From Eubacterium sp. (lineage in GTDB: Bacteria > Bacillota > Clostridia > Lachnospirales > Lachnospiraceae), in NCBI GenBank assembly GCA_024681515.1, contig JAILAR010000106.1:1-64000 (forward strand): a stretch of 64,000 nt of DNA. The letters run 5' to 3'. Below are positions 11,400 through 43,442 of this stretch, one piece after another; position 1 is the stretch's first letter, and each line of letters opens with the position of its first letter. Below the pieces are notes generated by a model, which saw nothing but the letters and a program-made list of their open reading frames with translations, was not told the DNA's origin and ran no database searches. Made by a program: the position numbers and the translations under genes.

Positions 11400-12074
11400 A
11401 TGCCCATCGCCATGGGTGTTGTGGATATCGTCCGCTATCTTGCCATGCCGAATGAATACAGGAAGGTCTCCTACTACAAGTATGCCGTGCTGTTCTTCAT
11501 TTTCATGTGCGGTGTGTATGAGTTTATGCAGATCGCGGAAATGAGCCGCCGCGGACAGTATGCACAGATCATGGAGGAAATGGCTTATAAGGACGGTCTG
11601 ACCGGACTTCTCAACCGGATGGCTTATAACCGGGAACTGGAAGCGGCCGCAAAGAAGGATGCGCCCTGTACACTGATCATGCTGGATATGAACTATCTGA
11701 AGAAGGTAAATGATGAGCGCGGACACGACAGGGGAGATATGTATATCTTCAAGATCGCAGAGTTCATGCAAAAGTCCTTCTGCCACGGAGAAAAAAGCTT
11801 CCGTATCGGCGGAGATGAATTCTTTGTTCTGGCGGAGTATACCAATGAGGATCCGCTGTTTTCGGAAAGTATTCAGAACATGAAGCATATGGTGGATGAA
11901 TTCAACGAAAACTTCGGAAAAGCTCTGCCCCTCAGTATCGCCTACGGATATTCGGTGTTCCGGCCCGGTGAGACGGATCTGGATGAACAGGTCCGCATCG
12001 CGGATCAGAAGATGTACAAGATGAAAGTGGAGATGAAGGCGGGAATGGCCTTCGGACTTGCTTCCGTTGATTAA
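11400..12074 (+). CDS. GGDEF diguanylate cyclase, probably 5'-truncated
   Basis: The 224-aa ORF carries a complete GGDEF domain: DGLTGLLNRMAYNREL, MLDMNYLKKVND with the metal-binding Asp, and RIGGDEFFVLAE as the active loop, ending in the usual ADQKMYKMK helix. The first ~45 residues contain one clear membrane segment (YYKYAVLFFIFMCGVYEFM) and look like the last helices of a larger multi-pass input domain. An in-frame TAA lies five codons upstream of the first ATG. No Shine-Dalgarno motif precedes it, and a -10 box overlaps the expected leader. I read this as a remnant left by a deletion next to the ATPase-TOPRIM cassette. The enzyme core could still work if it is expressed. Confidence 0.65.
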   Translation: MPIAMGVVDIVRYLAMPNEYRKVSYYKYAVLFFIFMCGVYEFMQIAEMSRRGQYAQIMEEMAYKDGLTGLLNRMAYNRELEAAAKKDAPCTLIMLDMNYLKKVNDERGHDRGDMYIFKIAEFMQKSFCHGEKSFRIGGDEFFVLAEYTNEDPLFSESIQNMKHMVDEFNENFGKALPLSIAYGYSVFRPGETDLDEQVRIADQKMYKMKVEMKAGMAFGLASVD

Positions 12075-12144
12075 ACGGAATATAGAGAATTGTAATACAT
12101 GTAAAGCAACAAAAAGCAACAAAATGCAAAAAAGGAAGGTTTTT

Positions 12145-15100
12145 ATGAGTTACGGCAAGCATAAAAAATGGATCGCGGCAGCACTCTCCGGAGTGCTGCT
12201 TCTTGGTGCTTTCGGGCCACTCGCTCCGCAGGTTCTGGCGGCGGAAAGTGAAGAAAGTGCAGAAATCGCAGGACGTACGGAGAGCTGGGCGGAGAAGATT
12301 CCTTCTCTGCTTGCCGCAGGGGAGTATGAGGAGGGTGTCGTCGTTGTCGGAATCGACCGCAGCCTGCCGGCCCCTGCCAGAAACTGCGGAGTGGATGGTG
12401 CGGTGATCAATTCCGGGACGGAGAAAATCATGTCCGTAGCGGAAGATCATGTGACCATGGCTGATACAGCGGCGGATGACATGAAGATGTCCCAAAACGG
12501 TACGGGCTCGGACGGCGTGTCCGACACCATCAGCATCGAGATCGCTTCGGACAGCAGCAAGACCACGGAAGAACTGCTTTATGAGCTGGCGAAGGATGCG
12601 AGGGTCGTTTTTGCGGAGCCGAACTATCTGACCGAGGAGAGCAGTGAAAAGGAGCAAAAGATTCTGGCCTCTTATCTGGATGATGAACTTGCAGAGGCAT
12701 CGGAGATCGCGGATCTGACTTCGCTCCAGTGGGGCTGCTGGGACGGAATGGGTACGGTAAGAAAGGATATGTCCAAAGATGCATCCATTCATGTACCGAC
12801 CTTTGGGGCGACAGGACGGAACATGACAGGAGATCCCATCGTGGTGGCTGTTCTGGATTATCCGGTGGATTATACGAATCAGGACCTCTCGGACCGGATC
12901 TACCGTTTTTCCGCGAGCCAGCAGAAACTGCTTGGCTGTGATGAATACGGGTATAATGCATGCTGGCAGAGCGCGAACGGTAAAATGGATTATTTCGGGG
13001 GGAGTCATGGAACCCACTGCTCCGGCATCATCGGTGCATCCTGGGACGGGCATGGTATCAGCGGCGTTGCATCGAATACAAAGATCATCTCTGTTCAGAT
13101 TGCCCTGGAAGACGGAAATACCTCGCTGGTCAATCTTCTGCGGGGATTTGCATTTGTAAAGAACGCAAATGAAAACGGCATCGGGATCCGTGTGACCAGC
13201 AATTCCTACGGCCTTGTGCAGTACAGCGCTGCGCTGGATGCGGCAGTCCGGGAACTGGGCGAGGAATATGGTACGGTATCGGTATTTGCGGCCGGTAATT
13301 CCAACAAGGATCTGGGACTCCTCACGGATCTGGGATCCACACTGGAAGATAATCCGTATGCCATCGTTGTGGCGGCAACGGATCAGAGCGAGAAGAGGGC
13401 CGGCTTTTCCAATTACGGAGAAGGAACGGTTGATCTGGGTGCGCCCGGTGTATCGATCCTTTCCACGGTAACTACGGACTGTGTGTCCTATCTGCCGGAT
13501 GCGGTGCCGGGAAGCAATCTTCGGTATGAAGGATTTGAAGGTGAGGTGGCGACAGATGTTGCGATCCGCGCGGTGGTCATGGGAAATGAAACGGTGGAAC
13601 CGTATGCAGACGGCACTCCGCAGCAGACAGCGGAAGGGGAGCCGTATTTCCTTGGAGAACACTCTGCAAAACTTACCCTTCCTTCGGGAACTGCCAATGC
13701 GCGTGCCCTGGAGTTTCAGTTGGGAGATGTCAGTGATTCGGAAGAACGGTTATACTTCGGTCTTTCCTACTATCAGCCGGATCGGTACACGAACGTTCGT
13801 TTCCATGCGAAGGGAAAGGACGGAAGCTATGAGGAACTGAAAAGAACAATGAATGATGAGGGAGGCTCCGGCTCCGGCTCCGGCTGGCATGCCGTTTCGG
13901 TTATGCTGGAGGATAGTACGGACCTGAGTGATCTGGATATTGTGGTTACCCTCGGGGCTTCGGATTCCGCCGGAGAGCTTTATATCGATTCCGTGGGACT
14001 CGGAACCAAATGTGTACCTTACGCTTATATGAGCGGTACGTCCATGGCCTGCCCTATGGTGTCGGGCGCTGTGGCCGTGCTTGCGGCGGACCGGCCGGAG
14101 CTTTCCGGACTGGAACTGGCTTCACTTGTGAAATCCTCGGTTCGTCCGGCGACTTCCATGAAGGGGATCACCAAAACCGGCGGTGTGATCGATTTTGAAG
14201 CGGTGACGGGACTCCGGAGTCCGGTGATCACCGATCTGGGTCTGCAGGACGGAGTCCTTGAAATAAAGGGTTCGGGCTTTGGGGAGACCATTGGACGGAT
14301 CCGCGTGATCCGTCGCTCCGTGGGAACGGATCCGGTGACACTGTATGATTCCTCCAAAGCGAAGAACAAGAAGGATATCACCTGGAATGATACGTCCATA
14401 TCCCTTCCCTATGCGGGCACGGCTTCGGGTGTGGCCCAGGTGATGATCGAGAATGCTTCCGGCAGGAGCGGTTCCCGGGAACTGCTTCTGGGACGCGGCG
14501 AAAATGTATATGAGAAGGAGCTTCCGACCTTTGAGGATTATGCGGAGATCCGGCTCCCGGACGGAAGCAACGGACGCGCGGACCTTGACACGGCAGGAAC
14601 TCTGACCGGCTTTGGAGACAAACTGTACTATATTCCTACCTCCACTTTGGTAGAGGAACAGCCGGTTTCAAAACGCATGTTTATTTATGATCCGCAGAAT
14701 GAATACTGGGATGAGGGACCGGAGCTGCCGGAACCGCTCTGCCACATTTCTTCTGCAATCTATGAGCAGCGGCTCTATGTTATGGGTGAATCCGCGGCAT
14801 ATTATAACGGGGAGATCGGATACTACAATGACTGTTCCACCATGCGGGTCTATGTATATAATCCGGAACTGAATCAGTGGATCAAGGTTTCTGCTGAGGG
14901 CGTACAGCTGGGACAGTCCATCGTGAATTACAACGAGGAGCTCTTTGTTGTGGGCGGGACCGAGGTGGCACTGTATTCTCCGTATGAGGGCGCCGATAAG
15001 GCGGTCGTATCGCTTCGGGAGGAAATCAACTGGCCGAGCCTGGCGGCAAAGGGAGACTGTATCTACGTTTATGATGCGCAGCAGTATCGGTTCGGTGTGA

Positions 15101-15993
15101 TCCAGGAACGGGCTTATCAGGATCTGTCCGGTACGCTTCCTGAGATCATGAATTATACGGCCGGAAGAGAAGAGGAGAATTACTGGATGCGCCGGGGGAC
15201 CCTGCTGGCCGTATCCGATGGAATCCTGCTGGTGGGACCGGCGGAGAAGAGTCAGGGCACGGATAAAGTGATCTCGGATACCTTCCTGCTGAGGGAGGGT
15301 GCTTCGAAGTTTGAATCCTGGCCGAAGCGTATGTCAGAGGACCGGGTGAAGGCTTCTGCTGTGGCATCCTATCGCGGCTGGGTATATGCCATCGGTACGG
15401 CAACTCTGGAGCCGGGAGAGTACTTCTTCCGTGCGACCGCCATGGAAGTGGATGAGTATTACGGAGACATCCCGCGGAAGGAAGATACGCTGAAATGGAA
15501 GCATAACAGCAAGGGCTGGTGGATGGAATATCCGGACGGGACATATCCGAAGAGCGAATGGATCCAGGTAAAAGGAAAATGGTACTATTTCGCGGAAGAC
15601 GGCTACATGGCTGTCAATGAGTGGCGGGACGGCCGCTGGCTTGGAAAGAACGGTGCATGGACCTATGAAGGCACCGGCACATGGAAGAGCAACAAATACG
15701 GCCGCTGGTATGAGGACAGTCTGGGCTGGTATCCGGTGAGCCGCTGGCAGAAGATCGACGGGAAGTGGTACTACTTCAACAAGAACGGGTATGTTGTGAC
15801 CGGCTGGCAGCAGCTGAGCGGGAAATGGTATTTCTTCAATAAGGACGGATCCATGAAGACCGGCTGGAAAAAGTCCGGCGGAAAATGGTATTACCTTGGT
15901 GCAGACGGGGCGATGGTAACTGCCAAAACGTTGCGTATGTCCGGTAAGGTAACGTATGAGTTTGACGAAAACGGGGTCTGCGTGAATCCGTAG
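12145..15993 (+). CDS. Secreted wall-bound subtilisin-like serine protease with kelch-like region
   Basis: The track start at 12058 overlaps the GGDEF gene. The ATG at 12145 follows AAGGAAGG by 5 nt and begins a proper signal peptide (MSYGKHKKWIAAALSGVLLL), giving 1282 aa. The subtilase triad is visible: Asp in VAVLDYPVDYTNQDL, His in GGSHGTHCSGIIGA, oxyanion Asn in TSNSYG and Ser in MSGTSMACPMVSGAVAV. The catalytic domain is split by a ~170-residue insertion with a carbohydrate-binding look between the PGVSILST strand and the Ser motif. A central region of kelch-like blades follows (YDPQNEYWDEGPELPEP). The last ~170 residues are wall-binding repeats (GKWYYFNKNGYVVTGWQ). It probably processes extracellular proteins at the cell surface. 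The structured element at 15994 abuts its stop codon. Confidence 0.9.
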   Translation: MSYGKHKKWIAAALSGVLLLGAFGPLAPQVLAAESEESAEIAGRTESWAEKIPSLLAAGEYEEGVVVVGIDRSLPAPARNCGVDGAVINSGTEKIMSVAEDHVTMADTAADDMKMSQNGTGSDGVSDTISIEIASDSSKTTEELLYELAKDARVVFAEPNYLTEESSEKEQKILASYLDDELAEASEIADLTSLQWGCWDGMGTVRKDMSKDASIHVPTFGATGRNMTGDPIVVAVLDYPVDYTNQDLSDRIYRFSASQQKLLGCDEYGYNACWQSANGKMDYFGGSHGTHCSGIIGASWDGHGISGVASNTKIISVQIALEDGNTSLVNLLRGFAFVKNANENGIGIRVTSNSYGLVQYSAALDAAVRELGEEYGTVSVFAAGNSNKDLGLLTDLGSTLEDNPYAIVVAATDQSEKRAGFSNYGEGTVDLGAPGVSILSTVTTDCVSYLPDAVPGSNLRYEGFEGEVATDVAIRAVVMGNETVEPYADGTPQQTAEGEPYFLGEHSAKLTLPSGTANARALEFQLGDVSDSEERLYFGLSYYQPDRYTNVRFHAKGKDGSYEELKRTMNDEGGSGSGSGWHAVSVMLEDSTDLSDLDIVVTLGASDSAGELYIDSVGLGTKCVPYAYMSGTSMACPMVSGAVAVLAADRPELSGLELASLVKSSVRPATSMKGITKTGGVIDFEAVTGLRSPVITDLGLQDGVLEIKGSGFGETIGRIRVIRRSVGTDPVTLYDSSKAKNKKDITWNDTSISLPYAGTASGVAQVMIENASGRSGSRELLLGRGENVYEKELPTFEDYAEIRLPDGSNGRADLDTAGTLTGFGDKLYYIPTSTLVEEQPVSKRMFIYDPQNEYWDEGPELPEPLCHISSAIYEQRLYVMGESAAYYNGEIGYYNDCSTMRVYVYNPELNQWIKVSAEGVQLGQSIVNYNEELFVVGGTEVALYSPYEGADKAVVSLREEINWPSLAAKGDCIYVYDAQQYRFGVIQERAYQDLSGTLPEIMNYTAGREEENYWMRRGTLLAVSDGILLVGPAEKSQGTDKVISDTFLLREGASKFESWPKRMSEDRVKASAVASYRGWVYAIGTATLEPGEYFFRATAMEVDEYYGDIPRKEDTLKWKHNSKGWWMEYPDGTYPKSEWIQVKGKWYYFAEDGYMAVNEWRDGRWLGKNGAWTYEGTGTWKSNKYGRWYEDSLGWYPVSRWQKIDGKWYYFNKNGYVVTGWQQLSGKWYFFNKDGSMKTGWKKSGGKWYYLGADGAMVTAKTLRMSGKVTYEFDENGVCVNP

Positions 15994-16102
15994 CTTCCAT
16001 TCCGCCATCAGGCGGAATGAGAAGCGTATACGCCCATCACCCAAGGTGATGCCCGAACGAAGTGAGGGTTATGATCCGGCTTCCTTGGCCGGCTCATAAG
16101 GC
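15994..16102 (+). ncRNA. Four-hairpin structured element, copy A
   Basis: Starting at the subtilase stop codon the sequence folds into a hairpin with a CATCAG hexaloop (15994-16024). It is followed by GTATACGCCCA, a stem ATCACC/GGTGAT, a tandem-G.A hairpin CCC-GA-AC-GAA-GT-GA-GGG (16052-16068) and a stem with CCGGC/GCCGG, closing with AAGGC. Copy B at 40939-41049 has the same order, loops and linkers, but its stems differ by paired changes. That covariation supports a conserved RNA structure. Function is unknown; both copies sit immediately 3' of a coding region. Confidence 0.6.
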
Positions 16103-38038: not shown

Positions 38039-40939
38039 GTGAAAAAGAAAAAAATGAGGAGTCCGCTTCAGAAACGGGTTCCGAAGGAACTGATCGGTGA
38101 ATGGCGGAAATATCTTGTGATCTTCCTGCTGCTGGCGATCACTATCGGATTTGTATCCGGTATGTATGTGGCGAACAACAGCATGCTGACGGCGATCGAT
38201 GAATCAGTAACAAAATATAAGCAGGAATACGGTCATTTTGAACTGAACCAGGAAGCAGATGCCGAGCTTCTTGCAAAGCTGGAGAGCGGTGAGCAGGCGG
38301 ATATCTGGGCAGTGGCAACGGAAGAGGCCCGGAAAGAAGCAGACGCAAAGATCGATGCGGAAGCCCGAAAGCAGGCGGAGGAGCAGGCAGAGAAGCTTCT
38401 GGAGGAAGGCGTACGAAGCGCCATTGAGACAGAAGTAAAGACAGCAATCGAGGCACAGGTAAAGTCGGCCATCGAAGCCCAGGTGCAGCAGATGATCCCG
38501 GCAGGAACACCGGAATATGAGGCCGCTCTGAAACAAGCTATGGATCAGTCCTATGATGCGGCATTACAGCAGGCAATGAGCCAGTCCTACGATGCTGCAG
38601 TAAAACAGGCAATGAATGAAGCCTATGACGAGGCGCTGAAGAAAGCAAAGGAGGAATCCTACGAAGAGGTACTGCAGAAGATACTGGATTCCGAAGAATT
38701 TCAGACGGCGATCAGCGATATCCGAAAGGAAGCCTATGAGGAAATTGATAAGAAGGTAAATGAGGAAAAGGAGAAGCAGGAAGCAAAGAAATCCGAGGAA
38801 CAAAGGAAGGCGGAAGAAAACTTCTTTGCGGTTCCCGTAAAGCTTTATAAGAATTATTATAAAGATGTGGAAGAGGACTGGGACCGCGACGGGAAGAAGA
38901 ACGGAAAGGTCCGCCTTTACAGAAATACCGACGAGATCAACCATTCCTGTTATCTGGAAGGCGAGGAACCGAAAAATGATTCCGAGATCGCCATCGACCG
39001 GATGCATGCGGACTGCAACGGCGTCAAGGTGGGCGATACCATCCGGGTGCAGGGACGGGATATGAAGGTCACCGGCCTCATCGCCATGGTGAATTACTCC
39101 ACACTTTATGAGAAGAATACGGATTCCATGTTCGATGCCATCAGTTTTGATGTGGCAGTCGTTACACCGGAAGCCTTTGATCTGTTTGACGTAAGCATTC
39201 ATTACAACTATGCATGGATGTATGACACGGATGCACTGGGGGAGAAAGCCATCGACCCACAGGCCTCGGAAGAAAGGCAGAAGGAGCAGCAGAAGACCCT
39301 TTCGGATAATTACATGCTGGCGGTAATGACCCAGAGTGTGGCGGCAGACAACGAGCTGAAGGATTTCGTGCCCCGGTACGGAAATATGGCCATGAAGTTT
39401 GCGAAGGAGGATCTCTCCGGGGATGAAGTGATGGTGGGGATCCTGCTGTATATCTTCATCGTCATGATCGCATTTATCTTCGGCGTTACCATCACGAGTA
39501 CCATCAACAAAGAGGCATCGGCCATCGGAACGCTCCGGGCGTCCGGCTATACCAAGGGTGAACTGGTAAGGCATTATATGACGGTTCCGGTATTCGTAAC
39601 GCTGTTTTCATCGATCATCGGAAATGTGCTGGGGTACACAGCTTTCAAGTTTATCGTTGTAGGGATGTACTATAACAGCTACAGCCTTCCGACCTATGTG
39701 ACCATCTGGAATTCGGAAGCCTTTATCCGGACGACCCTGATCCCGGTGATCATCATGATCCTGGTGACCTGGCTTGTGATCCGCAGAGCCATGCGGTTCT
39801 CGCCCCTTCGGTTCCTGCGTCATGATCTGCGGAGCAGCAAGAGGAAAAAAGCGGTGAAGCTGCCGCATTTCCCGTTCTTCCACAGATTCCGTCTCCGGGT
39901 GATCCTGCAGAACATCCCGAACTATCTGGTGCTGTTCTTCGGACTGGCCTTCGTCATGATCCTGCTGGCATTTTCCTTCGGACTTCCGTCCACGCTGAAC
40001 AGCTATACGGATAACGTGGTGGATGAAATGTTCGTAAAGAATCAGTACATCCTGAAAACGCTGGAGGATGAGGACGGAAATGAACTGACAACAAAGACCG
40101 AGGGTGCGGAGAAATTCAGTATCACGGATCTGAAGACCACAGACGGACCGAGGGTCGGCGAAGCCATCACGGCATACGGAGTTGTGGTGGATAGTAAGTA
40201 TCTGGCGATTCCGGCGGGTCTGGCAGAGGATGAAGTGTACATTTCCTCGGCATATCGTGACAAGTTCAAACTGCAGGTTGGCGACAGCATCACACTGAAG
40301 AAACCCTTTGCAGAAGATAAGTACACATTTAAGGTTGCAGGTGTCATGGATTACACCGGCGGACTTATTGTGATCATGCCGCAGGATCATTTCAACAGTA
40401 CCTTCGGTTATAAGGCAGGATCCTTCAGCGGATATATGAGTAACGAGGAGATCACGGATATCGCAAAGAAGGATATCGCAGCCTCCATCACGGAAGATGA
40501 CATTCTGAAGATTTCACGGCAGCTGAATCATTCCATGGGTGATTACATGGCCATCTTCCAGGTGGTATGCTTCATCCTGGCGCTGATCCTGATCTACATG
40601 CTGACCAAGGTTATCATCGAGCGGAATGAAAATGCCATCTCCATGGTAAAGATCCTGGGATATGAAAATAAAGAGATCGCGTCCCTGTATCTCATCAGCA
40701 CCACCTGGTTTGTCCTGATCTCGGCCATCATCACGGCCTTTGCAGGCGTATGGGCCCTTTCGGCCATCTGGGTGGCATATATGAAAAAGATGGACGGCTG
40801 GCTGCCGGTACACTTCGGTGCGACGGACTACCTCTGGATCATCGGGATCACCTTCGGTGCGTATCTCGTAGTTATGCTCCTGGATTACTTCCGGATCCGA
40901 AGAGTTCCTATGGATGAGGCGCTGAAAAATGTAGAATAG
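38039..40939 (+). CDS. FtsX-like ABC permease with large coiled-coil ectodomain
   Basis: GTG start, with GGAGGAGAG 4 nt upstream; 966 aa. An N-terminal membrane helix (YLVIFLLLAITIGFVSGMYV) is followed by an ectodomain whose residues ~80-270 form an Ala/Glu/Lys/Gln-rich coiled coil (EARKQAEEQAEKLLEEGV, repeated QAMSQSYDAA units). A MacB-type core and an FtsX domain of three membrane helices follow (GILLYIFIVMIAFIFGVTIT region). A second ectodomain and a second FtsX domain (VVCFILALILIYMLTKVI) complete the protein. Partner ATPase directly upstream. The coiled coil likely spans part of the wall or gates substrate. Its stop codon is embedded in the hairpin of element copy B. Confidence 0.9.
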   Translation: MKKKKMRSPLQKRVPKELIGEWRKYLVIFLLLAITIGFVSGMYVANNSMLTAIDESVTKYKQEYGHFELNQEADAELLAKLESGEQADIWAVATEEARKEADAKIDAEARKQAEEQAEKLLEEGVRSAIETEVKTAIEAQVKSAIEAQVQQMIPAGTPEYEAALKQAMDQSYDAALQQAMSQSYDAAVKQAMNEAYDEALKKAKEESYEEVLQKILDSEEFQTAISDIRKEAYEEIDKKVNEEKEKQEAKKSEEQRKAEENFFAVPVKLYKNYYKDVEEDWDRDGKKNGKVRLYRNTDEINHSCYLEGEEPKNDSEIAIDRMHADCNGVKVGDTIRVQGRDMKVTGLIAMVNYSTLYEKNTDSMFDAISFDVAVVTPEAFDLFDVSIHYNYAWMYDTDALGEKAIDPQASEERQKEQQKTLSDNYMLAVMTQSVAADNELKDFVPRYGNMAMKFAKEDLSGDEVMVGILLYIFIVMIAFIFGVTITSTINKEASAIGTLRASGYTKGELVRHYMTVPVFVTLFSSIIGNVLGYTAFKFIVVGMYYNSYSLPTYVTIWNSEAFIRTTLIPVIIMILVTWLVIRRAMRFSPLRFLRHDLRSSKRKKAVKLPHFPFFHRFRLRVILQNIPNYLVLFFGLAFVMILLAFSFGLPSTLNSYTDNVVDEMFVKNQYILKTLEDEDGNELTTKTEGAEKFSITDLKTTDGPRVGEAITAYGVVVDSKYLAIPAGLAEDEVYISSAYRDKFKLQVGDSITLKKPFAEDKYTFKVAGVMDYTGGLIVIMPQDHFNSTFGYKAGSFSGYMSNEEITDIAKKDIAASITEDDILKISRQLNHSMGDYMAIFQVVCFILALILIYMLTKVIIERNENAISMVKILGYENKEIASLYLISTTWFVLISAIITAFAGVWALSAIWVAYMKKMDGWLPVHFGATDYLWIIGITFGAYLVVMLLDYFRIRRVPMDEALKNVE

Positions 40940-41049
40940 AACCCGATTTTTCATCAGAAAAATCGGGTTCGTAGACGCCCACACGCCAGAGGCGTGTGCC
41001 CGAGCGAAGCGAGGGACATGTGCCGGTTACAGAAACCGGCACATGAGGC
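40939..41049 (+). ncRNA. Four-hairpin structured element, copy B
   Basis: It begins at the last base of the permease stop codon with a 13-bp perfect stem (GAACCCGATTTTT and its complement) and a CATCAG loop. GTAGACGCCCA, stem ACACGCC/GGCGTGT, the tandem-G.A hairpin CCC-GA-GC-GAA-GC-GA-GGG (40999-41015), a 12-bp stem CATGTGCCGGTT/AACCGGCACATG and AGGC follow. The order, loops and linkers match copy A at 15994, and paired changes in every stem keep the fold. Confidence 0.62.
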
Positions 41050-41172
41050 CTGATTCATCAGAAAAATTGGTTTGATAAGACTTATGTAAATCAAATTCCC
41101 ATAGGATTTTGTTGACATAATTCCAGAACACAAAATGTTAACGATTTGTAAATGAAATTTGAACAAAACCTA

Positions 41173-41200
41173 TTGACAAAATTTCATATTTGCGTATAAT
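41173..41200 (+). promoter_or_regulatory. Promoter of the candidate small RNA upstream of dnaX
   Basis: TTGACA, 16 bp, TATAAT: two perfect hexamers in AT-rich sequence with no ORF directly behind. Confidence 0.7.
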
Positions 41201-41206
41201 GGGCTT

Positions 41207-41370
41207 ATAAGGTTCAGAGAGAAACCGGCAGCGCAGTCCGAAATGCAAAGCCACGAAAGGTTTTTTGAGAGAGCTGACAACTTTGAGAGAGTTGTGAAAA
41301 AGATTCCTGCCGATCATTGGCAGGCAAAAAAAGAGGACAGGTTCCAAAGAGGACTGGTTCTCTTTTTTTG
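41207..41370 (+). ncRNA. Candidate small RNA of about 165 nt, identity unknown
   Basis: The predicted transcript runs from the promoter at 41173 to a terminator (41326-41370; AAAAAGAG/CTCTTTTT stem with T7 tail). Inside are hairpins ACAACT/AGTTGT and CCTGCC/GGCAGG. No credible start codon with ribosome binding site opens a conserved ORF. In Bacillus the SRP RNA gene lies just before dnaX, but the conserved GGAAGGNAGCAG tip is not found here, so this is not a recognisable SRP RNA. Confidence 0.45.
41326..41370 (+). terminator. Terminator of the candidate small RNA
   Basis: Long imperfect hairpin with outer AAAAAGAG/CTCTTTTT, G-U pairs inside, and a run of seven T. Confidence 0.75.
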
Positions 41371-41407
41371 CGCGTTTCCCCGAGGCGAGCACATGCGGAG
41401 CATGTGT

Positions 41408-41750: not shown

Positions 41751-43442
41751 ATGGCTTATGTAGCGCTGTACCGGAAATTCCGCCCGGACACTTTTGAAGA
41801 AGTGAAAGGGCAGGAACATGTTGTTACAGCTTTAAAAAATCAGATAAAATATGACCGCATAGGTCACGCCTATTTATTCTGCGGAACCAGAGGAACCGGT
41901 AAGACCTCTGTGGCGAAGCTCATGGCAAAAGCAGTCAACTGTGAACATCCGGTGGACGGCAGCCCCTGCGGAGAGTGTGACAGCTGCAGGCGGATCGCCT
42001 CCGGCGCCGCCATGAATGTGGTGGAGATCGATGCGGCTTCCAATAACGGCGTGGACAATATCCGTCAGATCAATGAGGGTGTGCAGTATGCCCCGTCCGA
42101 CGGAAAATACATGGTATATATCATCGACGAGGTGCATATGCTTTCGGCAGGCGCATTTAATGCCATGCTGAAGACTTTGGAGGAACCCCCGTCCTACGTG
42201 ATCTTCATTCTGGCTACCACGGAGTCCCACAAGGTTCCGGTAACCATCCGTTCCAGGTGCCAGCGATATGATTTCCGAAGGATCGAGTATTCGACCATCG
42301 CGGATCGAATGGAGGATCTGATGCAGAGGGAAGAGGTTCCCGTGACCAGAGACGCGCTCGAGTACATCGCCCGCGCTGCGGACGGCTCCATGCGTGATGC
42401 ACTCTCAATCCTTGATGAATGCGTGTCCTATCACCTGGGTGCGGAGCTTACGCTGGATCGTGTGCTTTCCACCATCGGCGCCGTGGATACGGAGCTTTTC
42501 GAAAAACTGACGGAGAAGATCGGAGAGGATGATCCCGTGGCTGTCATGGAACTGATCCATGAGGTAGTATGGAGAGGAACGGACCTGACAAGGTTTGTGG
42601 ATGATTACGTATGGTTCCTTCGGAACCTGCTCTTTCTTGCCCTTTCTCCGGGACTCGGAACCCGGCTGGATCTGACGGAAGAAAAAGTGGCACTGCTGAC
42701 AGAACTGGGAAAGCAGTTTACGCATGATACGCTGCAAAGGCAGCTTCATGTCATGCAGGATCTGTCACAGGAGATCCGGTACTCCTCGGCAAAACGTGTG
42801 ACCCTGGAAATGGGCATGATCCGTCTTATGCGTCCGGAAACGGATGTGGATCTGGAAGGAGTTCTTGCCCGTTTGGACCGGATGGAGCAGCGCGCGGAAT
42901 CGGCGGAAGCAGAGGTGCTCCGGCTGACGGAACGGATCGATGCGTTGAAAACAGAGATGGAACGCCGCCCGTTGGGAGCTGTGGCTGTGAGTCCTGACGG
43001 TATTTCCGGAGCAGATGCGGGTACGCAGCAGGGCAGGCCGGAGCTTACGGAAGAAGAATATAAGCAGGCGGTGCGACAGATCTATCCGAAGGCGGATCCG
43101 GATGAACTGTGCGAATTGGCGAAAACCTGGCGAAAGAAGATCCTTCCCAATCTGAAAAATGACAGCTTCCGGGCATTTCTCCAGTTTGCGCAGGTAATAC
43201 CTGATGTGACGGAACAGGGGGAGGCGGTCGGTTTAAAACTGGCGTTTGACGGGCTTGCACCGAGCAACCCGAAGGTGACCTTCTTCAAAAAACAGTCCCG
43301 GATGGAGGAACTCCGTGAGGAGGTAGAACAGCTGGCCGAGAGGAGTCTCTCCATTCGACTGGAAGAGTCGGAGGAAGAGATCAAGAAGATGATTGTGCTT
43401 GATATGACCAAAATACATTATGATGACATTGAGGAAGAATAA
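41751..43442 (+). CDS. dnaX: DNA polymerase III subunit gamma/tau
   Basis: This is the clamp-loader ATPase of the replisome, 563 aa. The start MAYVALYRKFRPDTFEEVKGQ is family-typical. Walker A is GTRGTGKTSVAK, the zinc site is CEHPVDGSPCGECDSC, Walker B is YIIDEVHMLS, the sensor is ILATTESHKVPVTIRSRCQRY, followed by domain III. The C-terminal ~190 residues (coiled region, then LKNDSFRAFLQFA) correspond to the tau-specific part that contacts polymerase. AGAAAGGA precedes the start. It leads the conserved dnaX-ybaB-recR order, followed by pfk. Confidence 0.97.
   Translation: MAYVALYRKFRPDTFEEVKGQEHVVTALKNQIKYDRIGHAYLFCGTRGTGKTSVAKLMAKAVNCEHPVDGSPCGECDSCRRIASGAAMNVVEIDAASNNGVDNIRQINEGVQYAPSDGKYMVYIIDEVHMLSAGAFNAMLKTLEEPPSYVIFILATTESHKVPVTIRSRCQRYDFRRIEYSTIADRMEDLMQREEVPVTRDALEYIARAADGSMRDALSILDECVSYHLGAELTLDRVLSTIGAVDTELFEKLTEKIGEDDPVAVMELIHEVVWRGTDLTRFVDDYVWFLRNLLFLALSPGLGTRLDLTEEKVALLTELGKQFTHDTLQRQLHVMQDLSQEIRYSSAKRVTLEMGMIRLMRPETDVDLEGVLARLDRMEQRAESAEAEVLRLTERIDALKTEMERRPLGAVAVSPDGISGADAGTQQGRPELTEEEYKQAVRQIYPKADPDELCELAKTWRKKILPNLKNDSFRAFLQFAQVIPDVTEQGEAVGLKLAFDGLAPSNPKVTFFKKQSRMEELREEVEQLAERSLSIRLEESEEEIKKMIVLDMTKIHYDDIEEE

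What the first reader, a model, noticed from the sequence alone, without database searches (positions are those of the whole stretch)
15994..16102. Two copies of a four-hairpin element placed exactly at stop codons
Copies at 15994-16102 and 40939-41049 share the order P0 (CATCAG hexaloop) - GTANACGCCCA - P1 - CCCGA-NC-GAA-GN-GAGGG - P3 (CCGG core) - AGGC. Almost every stem differs, yet pairing is kept: P0 arms are unrelated (ATTCCGC vs GAACCCGATTTTT), P1 is ATCACC/GGTGAT vs ACACGCC/GGCGTGT, and P2 has AC/GT vs GC/GC. Both begin at the end of a long gene for a surface or membrane protein. I know no named RNA with this layout. It could be a 3'-UTR regulatory RNA, a processing signal or a mobile structured repeat.
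Basis: seen in the sequence. Interest (0 to 1): 0.75.

Follow-up and report, generated by a model that had tools for sequence, protein, structure and literature searches.

The report
Folded repeat built around stop codons
Rumen bacteria of the family Lachnospiraceae carry a scattered 110-base repeat that folds into one hairpin plus a four-way junction and often sits so exactly at the end of genes that the gene's stop codon forms the foot of its first hairpin; it is missing from the RNA family catalogue and looks like a new, mobile cousin of the REP and BOX repeats that can influence the genes they follow.

Summary
Both copies are real. The host genome (a rumen Lachnospiraceae) has about 30 copies, 16 of 61 genomes of the genus have some, and a few other genera of the family do. 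Alignment of 58 distinct copies supports one fold: hairpin P0, linker CGTAYR, then a four-way junction (P1, P2, P3 closed by GCC/GGC or ACC/GGT). 35 of 40 pairs show changes on both sides (covariation 0.73 against 0.20 shuffled). Mismatches show that only the sense strand folds. TAG directly precedes most copies and pairs with the CGTA that follows P0; in 44 of 80 such copies this TAG is the in-frame stop of a gene (about 11% expected). Proteins keep their natural ends. Related genomes lack the element and there use TAA, TGA or TAG. At orthologous sites structure persists while sequence changes. No Rfam match. Reading: a new family of small, mobile, structured repeats, REP- or BOX-like, that end up in mRNA 3' ends and between cistrons and probably act in cis on translation termination or mRNA decay. 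The mobiliser and the function remain unshown.

The parts
12058..15993 (+). Upstream gene of copy 1: subtilase with choline-binding (cell-wall) repeats, ends ...CVNP* with TAG
   Evidence: ORF; Pfam PF00082, PF19127, PF01473; orthologs end at the same codon without the element
15991..15993 (+). Copy 1: stop codon TAG, pairs with the CGTA after P0 (bulged G) at the foot of P0
   Evidence: TAG...CGTA in 76 of 79 TAG-preceded copies
15994..16025 (+). Copy 1 P0: arms 15994-16005 / 16012-16024 plus C16025 pairing with G of TAG; CATCAG loop 16006-16011
16026..16031 (+). Copy 1 linker GTATAC (consensus GTAYRC)
   Evidence: conserved across copies
16032..16034 (+). Copy 1 junction helix 5' strand GCC, pairs with GGC 16100-16102
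   Evidence: fold; G-C to A-U covariation
16035..16051 (+). Copy 1 P1 (CATCACC / GGTGATG, triloop)
16052..16068 (+). Copy 1 P2 (CCC-GA-AC-GAA-GT-GA-GGG, tandem G.A and GAA triloop)
16069..16099 (+). Copy 1 P3 (TTATGATCCGGC / GCCGGCTCATAA)
16100..16102 (+). Copy 1 junction helix 3' strand GGC
38039..40939 (+). Upstream gene of copy 2: FtsX/MacB-type permease, ends ...LKNVE* with TAG
   Evidence: ORF; PF02687, PF12704; seven orthologs end at the same codon
40937..40939 (+). Copy 2: stop codon TAG at the foot of P0
40940..40970 (+). Copy 2 P0: arms 40940-40951 / 40958-40969, loop CATCAG 40952-40957, C40970 pairs with G40939
40971..40976 (+). Copy 2 linker GTAGAC
40977..40979 (+). Copy 2 junction helix 5' strand GCC, pairs with 41047-41049
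40980..40998 (+). Copy 2 P1 (40980-40987 / 40991-40998)
40999..41015 (+). Copy 2 P2 (CCC-GA-GC-GAA-GC-GA-GGG)
41017..41045 (+). Copy 2 P3 (41017-41028 / 41034-41045)
41047..41049 (+). Copy 2 junction helix 3' strand GGC; a decayed remnant of a second unit (CATCAG with AAAAAT) seems to follow at 41050-41075

Best explanation
This is an undescribed family of small (about 105-120 nt), non-coding, dispersed structured repeats of Lachnospiraceae. One unit is TAG + P0 hairpin + CGTAYR linker + a four-way junction of P1, P2 and P3. The family spreads as a non-autonomous mobile element (each genome has its own near-identical subfamily, tandem arrays, and empty sites in relatives) and settles with its TAG serving as the stop codon of the upstream gene, so it becomes the 3' UTR or intercistronic spacer of that gene's mRNA. 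There the sense strand folds. Resident copies are kept structurally intact over long times, so they probably do something useful in cis. The most likely action, inferred from E. coli REPs close to stop codons, is a brake on ribosomes arriving at or leaving the stop codon and/or a barrier to 3'-5' exonucleases that sets the expression ratio of the genes on either side. SHOWN: fold, strand, placement, copy spread, retention at orthologous sites. INFERRED: transposition, co-transcription, cis effect. UNKNOWN: the mobilising enzyme.
For: Fold: 58 distinct copies, 35 of 40 pairs with two-sided changes, 96.6% pairs formed, covariation 0.729 vs 0.195 shuffled and at most 0.116 slid; the junction helix itself covaries (GC 35, AU 21). 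Strand: distinct G.T 49 vs A.C 22, G.A 53 vs C.T 5, so the sense strand folds. Stop codon: TAG precedes most copies; the 4 nt after P0 are CGTA in 76 of 79 of these; 44 of 80 TAGs are in-frame stops of ORFs of 100 codons or more against about 11% expected from TAG sites in the window, p about 2e-21. Proteins: 29 of 31 orthologs without the element end at the same codon; stops are TAG in 12 of 12 sites with the element, 10 of 31 without, Fisher p = 6e-5. Orientation: about 88 of 111 copies lie downstream of a co-directional ORF, 13 do not. Mobility: genome-specific subfamilies and arrays, e.g. five to six 113-bp units in G002, empty orthologous sites. Retention: at the FtsX and PotA loci orthologs are closer to each other than to paralogs, with two-sided changes outnumbering broken pairs 65 to 12 over all ortholog pairs. 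At the ACT-domain gene the P0 3' arm matches each species' own last codons and stop, TAG or TAA (a similar hairpin with TGA in G035). Downstream: 48 of 98 copies have an RBS and start within 80 nt. Few T-runs, so not terminators.
Against: No expression, 3'-end or ribosome data. No transposase was linked: Y1/RAYT genes do not track the element. No empty site resolves the insertion junction to the base. Roughly half the copies, and most in G226, are not at a stop codon, so that placement is not obligatory. Copies decay at some orthologous loci, so no copy is essential.
Confidence: 0.58

Rival explanations
1. A purely DNA-level selfish element: a single-stranded DNA hairpin transposed by a HUH/Y1-type (IS200/IS605, RAYT) enzyme that needs TAG as its target or guide. 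Position at stop codons reflects only where insertion does no harm, and RNA folding is irrelevant.
For: TAG or ATAG at the left end in most copies, like the GTAG tag of REPs (PMC3733652); strand-specific folding also fits ssDNA transposition; DNA folding gives nearly the same structure; GAA triloops in P1 and P2 are known to be very stable in DNA (own knowledge).
Against: Y1 transposases do not co-occur: 10 of 16 element-bearing and 26 of 45 other genomes, my tally; G000 holds only a 53-aa fragment. Copies at stops are about five times more frequent than TAG targeting alone predicts. Orthologous copies keep pairing by compensatory change, which a dead insertion need not do.
Confidence: 0.25
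2. A specific regulatory RNA: a riboswitch-like receptor or a processed trans-acting 3'-UTR sRNA released from these mRNAs.
For: Complex junction fold with conserved loop and linker; position between cistrons before an RBS in about half the copies.
Against: Upstream genes share no function; tandem copies with near-identical units; no conserved expression platform or T-run.
Confidence: 0.08
3. Integron-like attC sites, folded single-stranded recombination sites placed at cassette stop codons.
For: Structure conserved rather than sequence, position after stop codons, arrays.
Against: The attC boxes RYYYAAC and GTTRRRY occur in order in 0 of 59 copies; neighbours are housekeeping genes.
Confidence: 0.02
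4. A stop-codon recoding or readthrough signal (PYLIS-like) that acts on UAG.
For: UAG is preferred (12 of 12 sites) and is followed at once by a stable hairpin.
Against: Orthologs end at the same codon with TAA or TGA; TAA also occurs in P0; nothing coding is conserved after the stop.
Confidence: 0.02

Closest known systems
REP / GTAG- and CGTC-tagged palindromic repeats with RAYT transposases (PMC3733652, PMC2817692, PMC8266576)
   Same: Small extragenic structured repeats in genome-specific families, TAG-type tag at one foot, clusters, hairpin placed close to stop codons; E. coli REPs less than 16 nt from a stop down-regulate translation (reviewed in PMC12306157)
   Different: REPs are single 20-40 bp palindromes; this is 110 nt with a covarying four-way junction. 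Tag is TAG (ATAG or GTAG) and is itself the stop codon; no RAYT association
BOX, RUP and SPRITE repeats of Streptococcus pneumoniae (PMC3049150)
   Same: Dispersed repeats of about 100 nt with RNA-like folds, tandem internal units, co-transcribed with operons; BOX supplies the stop codon of 36 genes
   Different: No A/B/C module layout; here P0 pairs with the stop codon; copies kept at orthologous loci with compensatory change; different bacterial group and sequence
Bacterial MITEs
   Same: Non-autonomous, dispersed; in G261 five copies lie inside a repeat with terminal inverted repeats
   Different: The element itself has no terminal inverted repeats and no consistent target duplication (41 of 59 have none)
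Rfam 15 families
   Same: Covarying structured RNA-type fold
   Different: No family matched at gathering threshold; nothing meaningful at E up to 5

Membership tests
Any Rfam 15 RNA family | Score above the family's gathering cut-off | tested here: not met
   0 matches in the window; only unrelated sub-threshold matches around further copies
REP (GTAG type) | Single palindrome of 20-40 bp | tested here: not met
   P0 plus four-way junction, 105-120 nt
REP (GTAG type) | GTAG tetranucleotide at one foot | tested here: inconclusive
   TAG is conserved; the fourth base varies: ATAG 42, GTAG 25, TTAG 9, CTAG 3
REP (GTAG type) | Association with a RAYT / Y1 transposase | tested here: not met
   PF01797 presence does not track element presence in the genus
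BOX element | boxA-boxB(n)-boxC modules and BOX sequence | not tested
   No BOX model was run; comparison with the description in PMC3049150 only
MITE | Terminal inverted repeats and target-site duplication | tested here: not met
   No TIR seen in the unit; direct flanking repeats of 3 nt or more in 2 of 59 copies. Two G237 copies have ATAG on both sides
Integron attC site | RYYYAAC and GTTRRRY boxes | tested here: not met
   0 of 59 copies
Intrinsic terminator | G+C hairpin followed at once by a T-run | tested here: not met
   Run of 4 T within 14 nt in 7 of 59 copies

The most novel reading that the evidence does not exclude
A new class of cis-acting RNA, the stop-codon junction element: the UAG forms the foot of a hairpin next to a four-way junction, so that arrival and departure of the terminating ribosome opens and closes the fold and thereby sets reinitiation, mRNA stability or cistron ratios. 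It is kept by compensatory evolution at orthologous genes and rewritten so that P0 stays complementary to whatever stop codon the host gene uses.
Probability: 0.27. Interest if true: 0.8.

Novelty: new variant of a known kind. Interest (0 to 1): 0.57.

Why it matters
Small dispersed repeats are usually treated as junk hairpins. This family has a more elaborate, strand-specific fold than the REP hairpins, is built around the stop codon without changing the protein, and is kept at the same gene in different species while its sequence turns over. It offers a natural series for testing how structure at the stop codon affects termination, reinitiation and mRNA decay in anaerobic gut Firmicutes, and a starting point for finding an unknown mobiliser. 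It is also an unannotated family that genome pipelines currently miss.

Tried and rejected
Rfam at gathering and at E up to 5: nothing. Y1/RAYT transposase as the mobiliser: no correlation. attC and terminator readings: rejected. Low G.U share as proof of DNA-level selection: rejected, because terminator-like hairpins in the same genomes also have only 4.3% G.T against 2-4.5% here. Larger shared flank in G226 as an autonomous element: it is another repeat, no transposase reading frame was seen. A viral-contig hit (L301) and the Deltaproteobacteria and Acidimicrobiia hits to the short core: the L301 hit scores only E = 0.45 with the model, chance; the other two were not rescored and their taxonomy makes chance likely. 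Empty sites could not give an insertion junction to the base because the intergenic DNA is too diverged. Literature searches found no description of this element, but only open-licence papers are held.

Full report
OBSERVATION. Both copies are present as described. Copy 1 spans 15991-16102 and copy 2 spans 40937-41049 if the TAG is counted. Single-sequence folding gives P0, then GCC pairing with the final GGC around P1, P2 and P3, i.e. a closed four-way junction; z-scores are -6.9 and -10.9, with no shuffle as stable. The short core alone is not significant within the window, so I looked for more copies.

MORE COPIES. The core pattern has 20 hits in the host genome (3.13 Mb, 197 contigs), none for the reversed control; extracting them showed full copies and fragments of one repeat. 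A covariance model built from seven diverse copies (R1) finds 31 copies in the host and copies in 16 of 61 genomes of the genus (33 in one, 25 in the complete genome G002). In the rest of the family it is sparse: 7 of 397 genomes drawn across genera with the wider model R2, and 3 of 391 in the class. Viral contigs gave no convincing copy.

STRUCTURE. On 58 distinct copies, 96.6% of pair cells are standard, 35 of 40 pairs have two-sided changes, and the covariation score is 0.729 against 0.195 for shuffles and at most 0.116 for slid partners. The junction helix covaries: GCC/GGC in some, ACC/GGT in others. Caveat: the alignment was fitted to the model and copies are related, so these counts are not independent events; but the effect is far beyond both controls, and the seven-copy MAFFT alignment made without a model shows the same. 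Mismatch types are asymmetric: distinct G.T 49 against A.C 22, G.A 53 against C.T 5. G.T and G.A are tolerated in the strand that folds, so it is the strand reading TAG-P0-P1-P2-P3. The share of G.T is low (2-4.5%), but terminator-like hairpins in the same genomes are also low (4.3%), so I do not use this to argue for DNA.

STOP CODON. TAG directly precedes most copies (ATAG 42, GTAG 25, TTAG 9, CTAG 3) and the four bases after P0 are CGTA in 76 of 79 of those: T-A, A-T and G-C with one bulged G, so the TAG can be the foot of the stem. In 44 of 80 TAG-preceded copies that TAG is the in-frame stop of an ORF of at least 100 codons. If TAG sites were hit at random outside genes, about 11% would be stops (window estimate), p about 2e-21. 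The gene call is by ORF length only. Most other copies follow a co-directional gene; 13 of 111 have a longer opposite-strand ORF instead.

EMPTY SITES. For twelve host copies I compared orthologs in seven related genomes lacking the element at that site: 29 of 31 end at exactly the same codon, so the protein is not altered. The stop is TAG in 12 of 12 sites with the element, and TAG 10, TAA 14, TGA 7 without (Fisher p = 6e-5). Either TAG stops are the target or the stop becomes TAG on arrival; the data do not separate these.

RETENTION IN PLACE. The same element sits after an FtsX-type gene in four species, after potA in three, and after an ACT-domain gene in at least three. At FtsX and potA the orthologous copies resemble each other (76-96%) more than any paralog in their genome (65-73%), so they were inherited in place. 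Over all ortholog pairs there, two-sided changes outnumber broken pairs 65 to 12 (pairs of species overlap, so the numbers are not independent). At the ACT-domain gene (C-terminus MMHRI/V, natural in nearly all relatives) the stop lies inside the P0 5' arm and the 3' arm matches each species' own last codons and stop: GATC-TAG with CTAGATC, GGTC-TAA with TTAGACC, GATC-TAA with TTAGATC; in G035 a hairpin of the same kind holds CGGATC-TGA with TCAGATCCG. Three tandem units in G020 repeat this gene-specific arm. This is compensatory evolution or template-switch copying of an arm; I cannot tell which. Other orthologs hold only remnants or nothing, so the element is dispensable.

MOBILITY. Each genome has its own subfamily of near-identical copies at unrelated loci, plus tandem arrays: five to six 113-bp units in G002, three in G020 and G377. 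In G261 five copies lie inside a larger repeat with matching inverted ends (CAATATAGGTCTGAA), while a sixth sits plainly at a gene's TAG stop. Two G237 copies are flanked by ATAG on both sides, but most copies have no direct flanking repeat. Y1/RAYT transposases do not track the element. The mobiliser is therefore unknown.

MECHANISM. Established knowledge: REP hairpins in mRNA stabilise upstream messages, and those less than 16 nt from a stop reduce translation (reviewed in PMC12306157); BOX repeats supply the stop codon of 36 pneumococcal genes and are co-transcribed with operons (PMC3049150). Here the hairpin begins in the stop codon itself, there is no T-run, and about half the copies are followed within 80 nt by an RBS and start codon. 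I therefore infer a cis element acting in the mRNA between two cistrons: P0 meets the ribosome a few codons before the stop, must be opened for termination, and re-forms afterwards; the junction blocks 3' exonucleases. Fold, strand, placement and retention are shown; transcription and effect are inferred.

VERDICT. Not an artefact, not in Rfam, and no description found in the open literature searched. It works like REP/BOX repeats but fails the tested defining features of REPs (size, transposase; the tag only in part), so it is reported as a new variant of the small structured repeat kind.

Noticed in passing
window 41160-41395: Promoter-like TTGACA/TATAAT followed by a leader with GCAGTCCGAAATGC and GAGAGAGTTGTGAA boxes and a terminator-like hairpin with T-run, before dnaX (41751-43442); several of the boxes recur after the orthologous permease gene in five related genomes, no Rfam match. 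Possibly an undescribed small RNA or leader.
   Followed up: partly
L006, L008, L010, L104 directly upstream of the copies; L004, L007, L061 downstream: A second small repeat, a hairpin ending GCGCGAAGTATGGAATAG, abuts the element in several places, its final TAG doubling as the element's TAG.
   Followed up: no
L001, L013, L017, L018: A third dispersed repeat, a chain of GCGAAGCG mini-hairpins (CCACGGGATTGCC...CTGCGAAGCAG...GGTCGCGAAGCGACC) that shares only the CCCGAACGAAGTGAGGG block with this element.
   Followed up: no
L281, L286, L290, L292, L295 (G261): Repeat of roughly 300 bp with inverted ends CAATATAGGTCTGAA carrying the four-hairpin element inside, with TAA in place of TAG.
   Followed up: partly
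L058, L059, L064, L070, L076 (G226), 3' flank: Copies share a further conserved sequence (ATGATTTCTGGAACACCCACTAC...) downstream, also present in inverted orientation, apparently another repeat family joined to the element.
   Followed up: partly
genome G079, contig C6:3833-4143: The ACT-domain gene is split by a frameshift or TGA in one relative.
   Followed up: no
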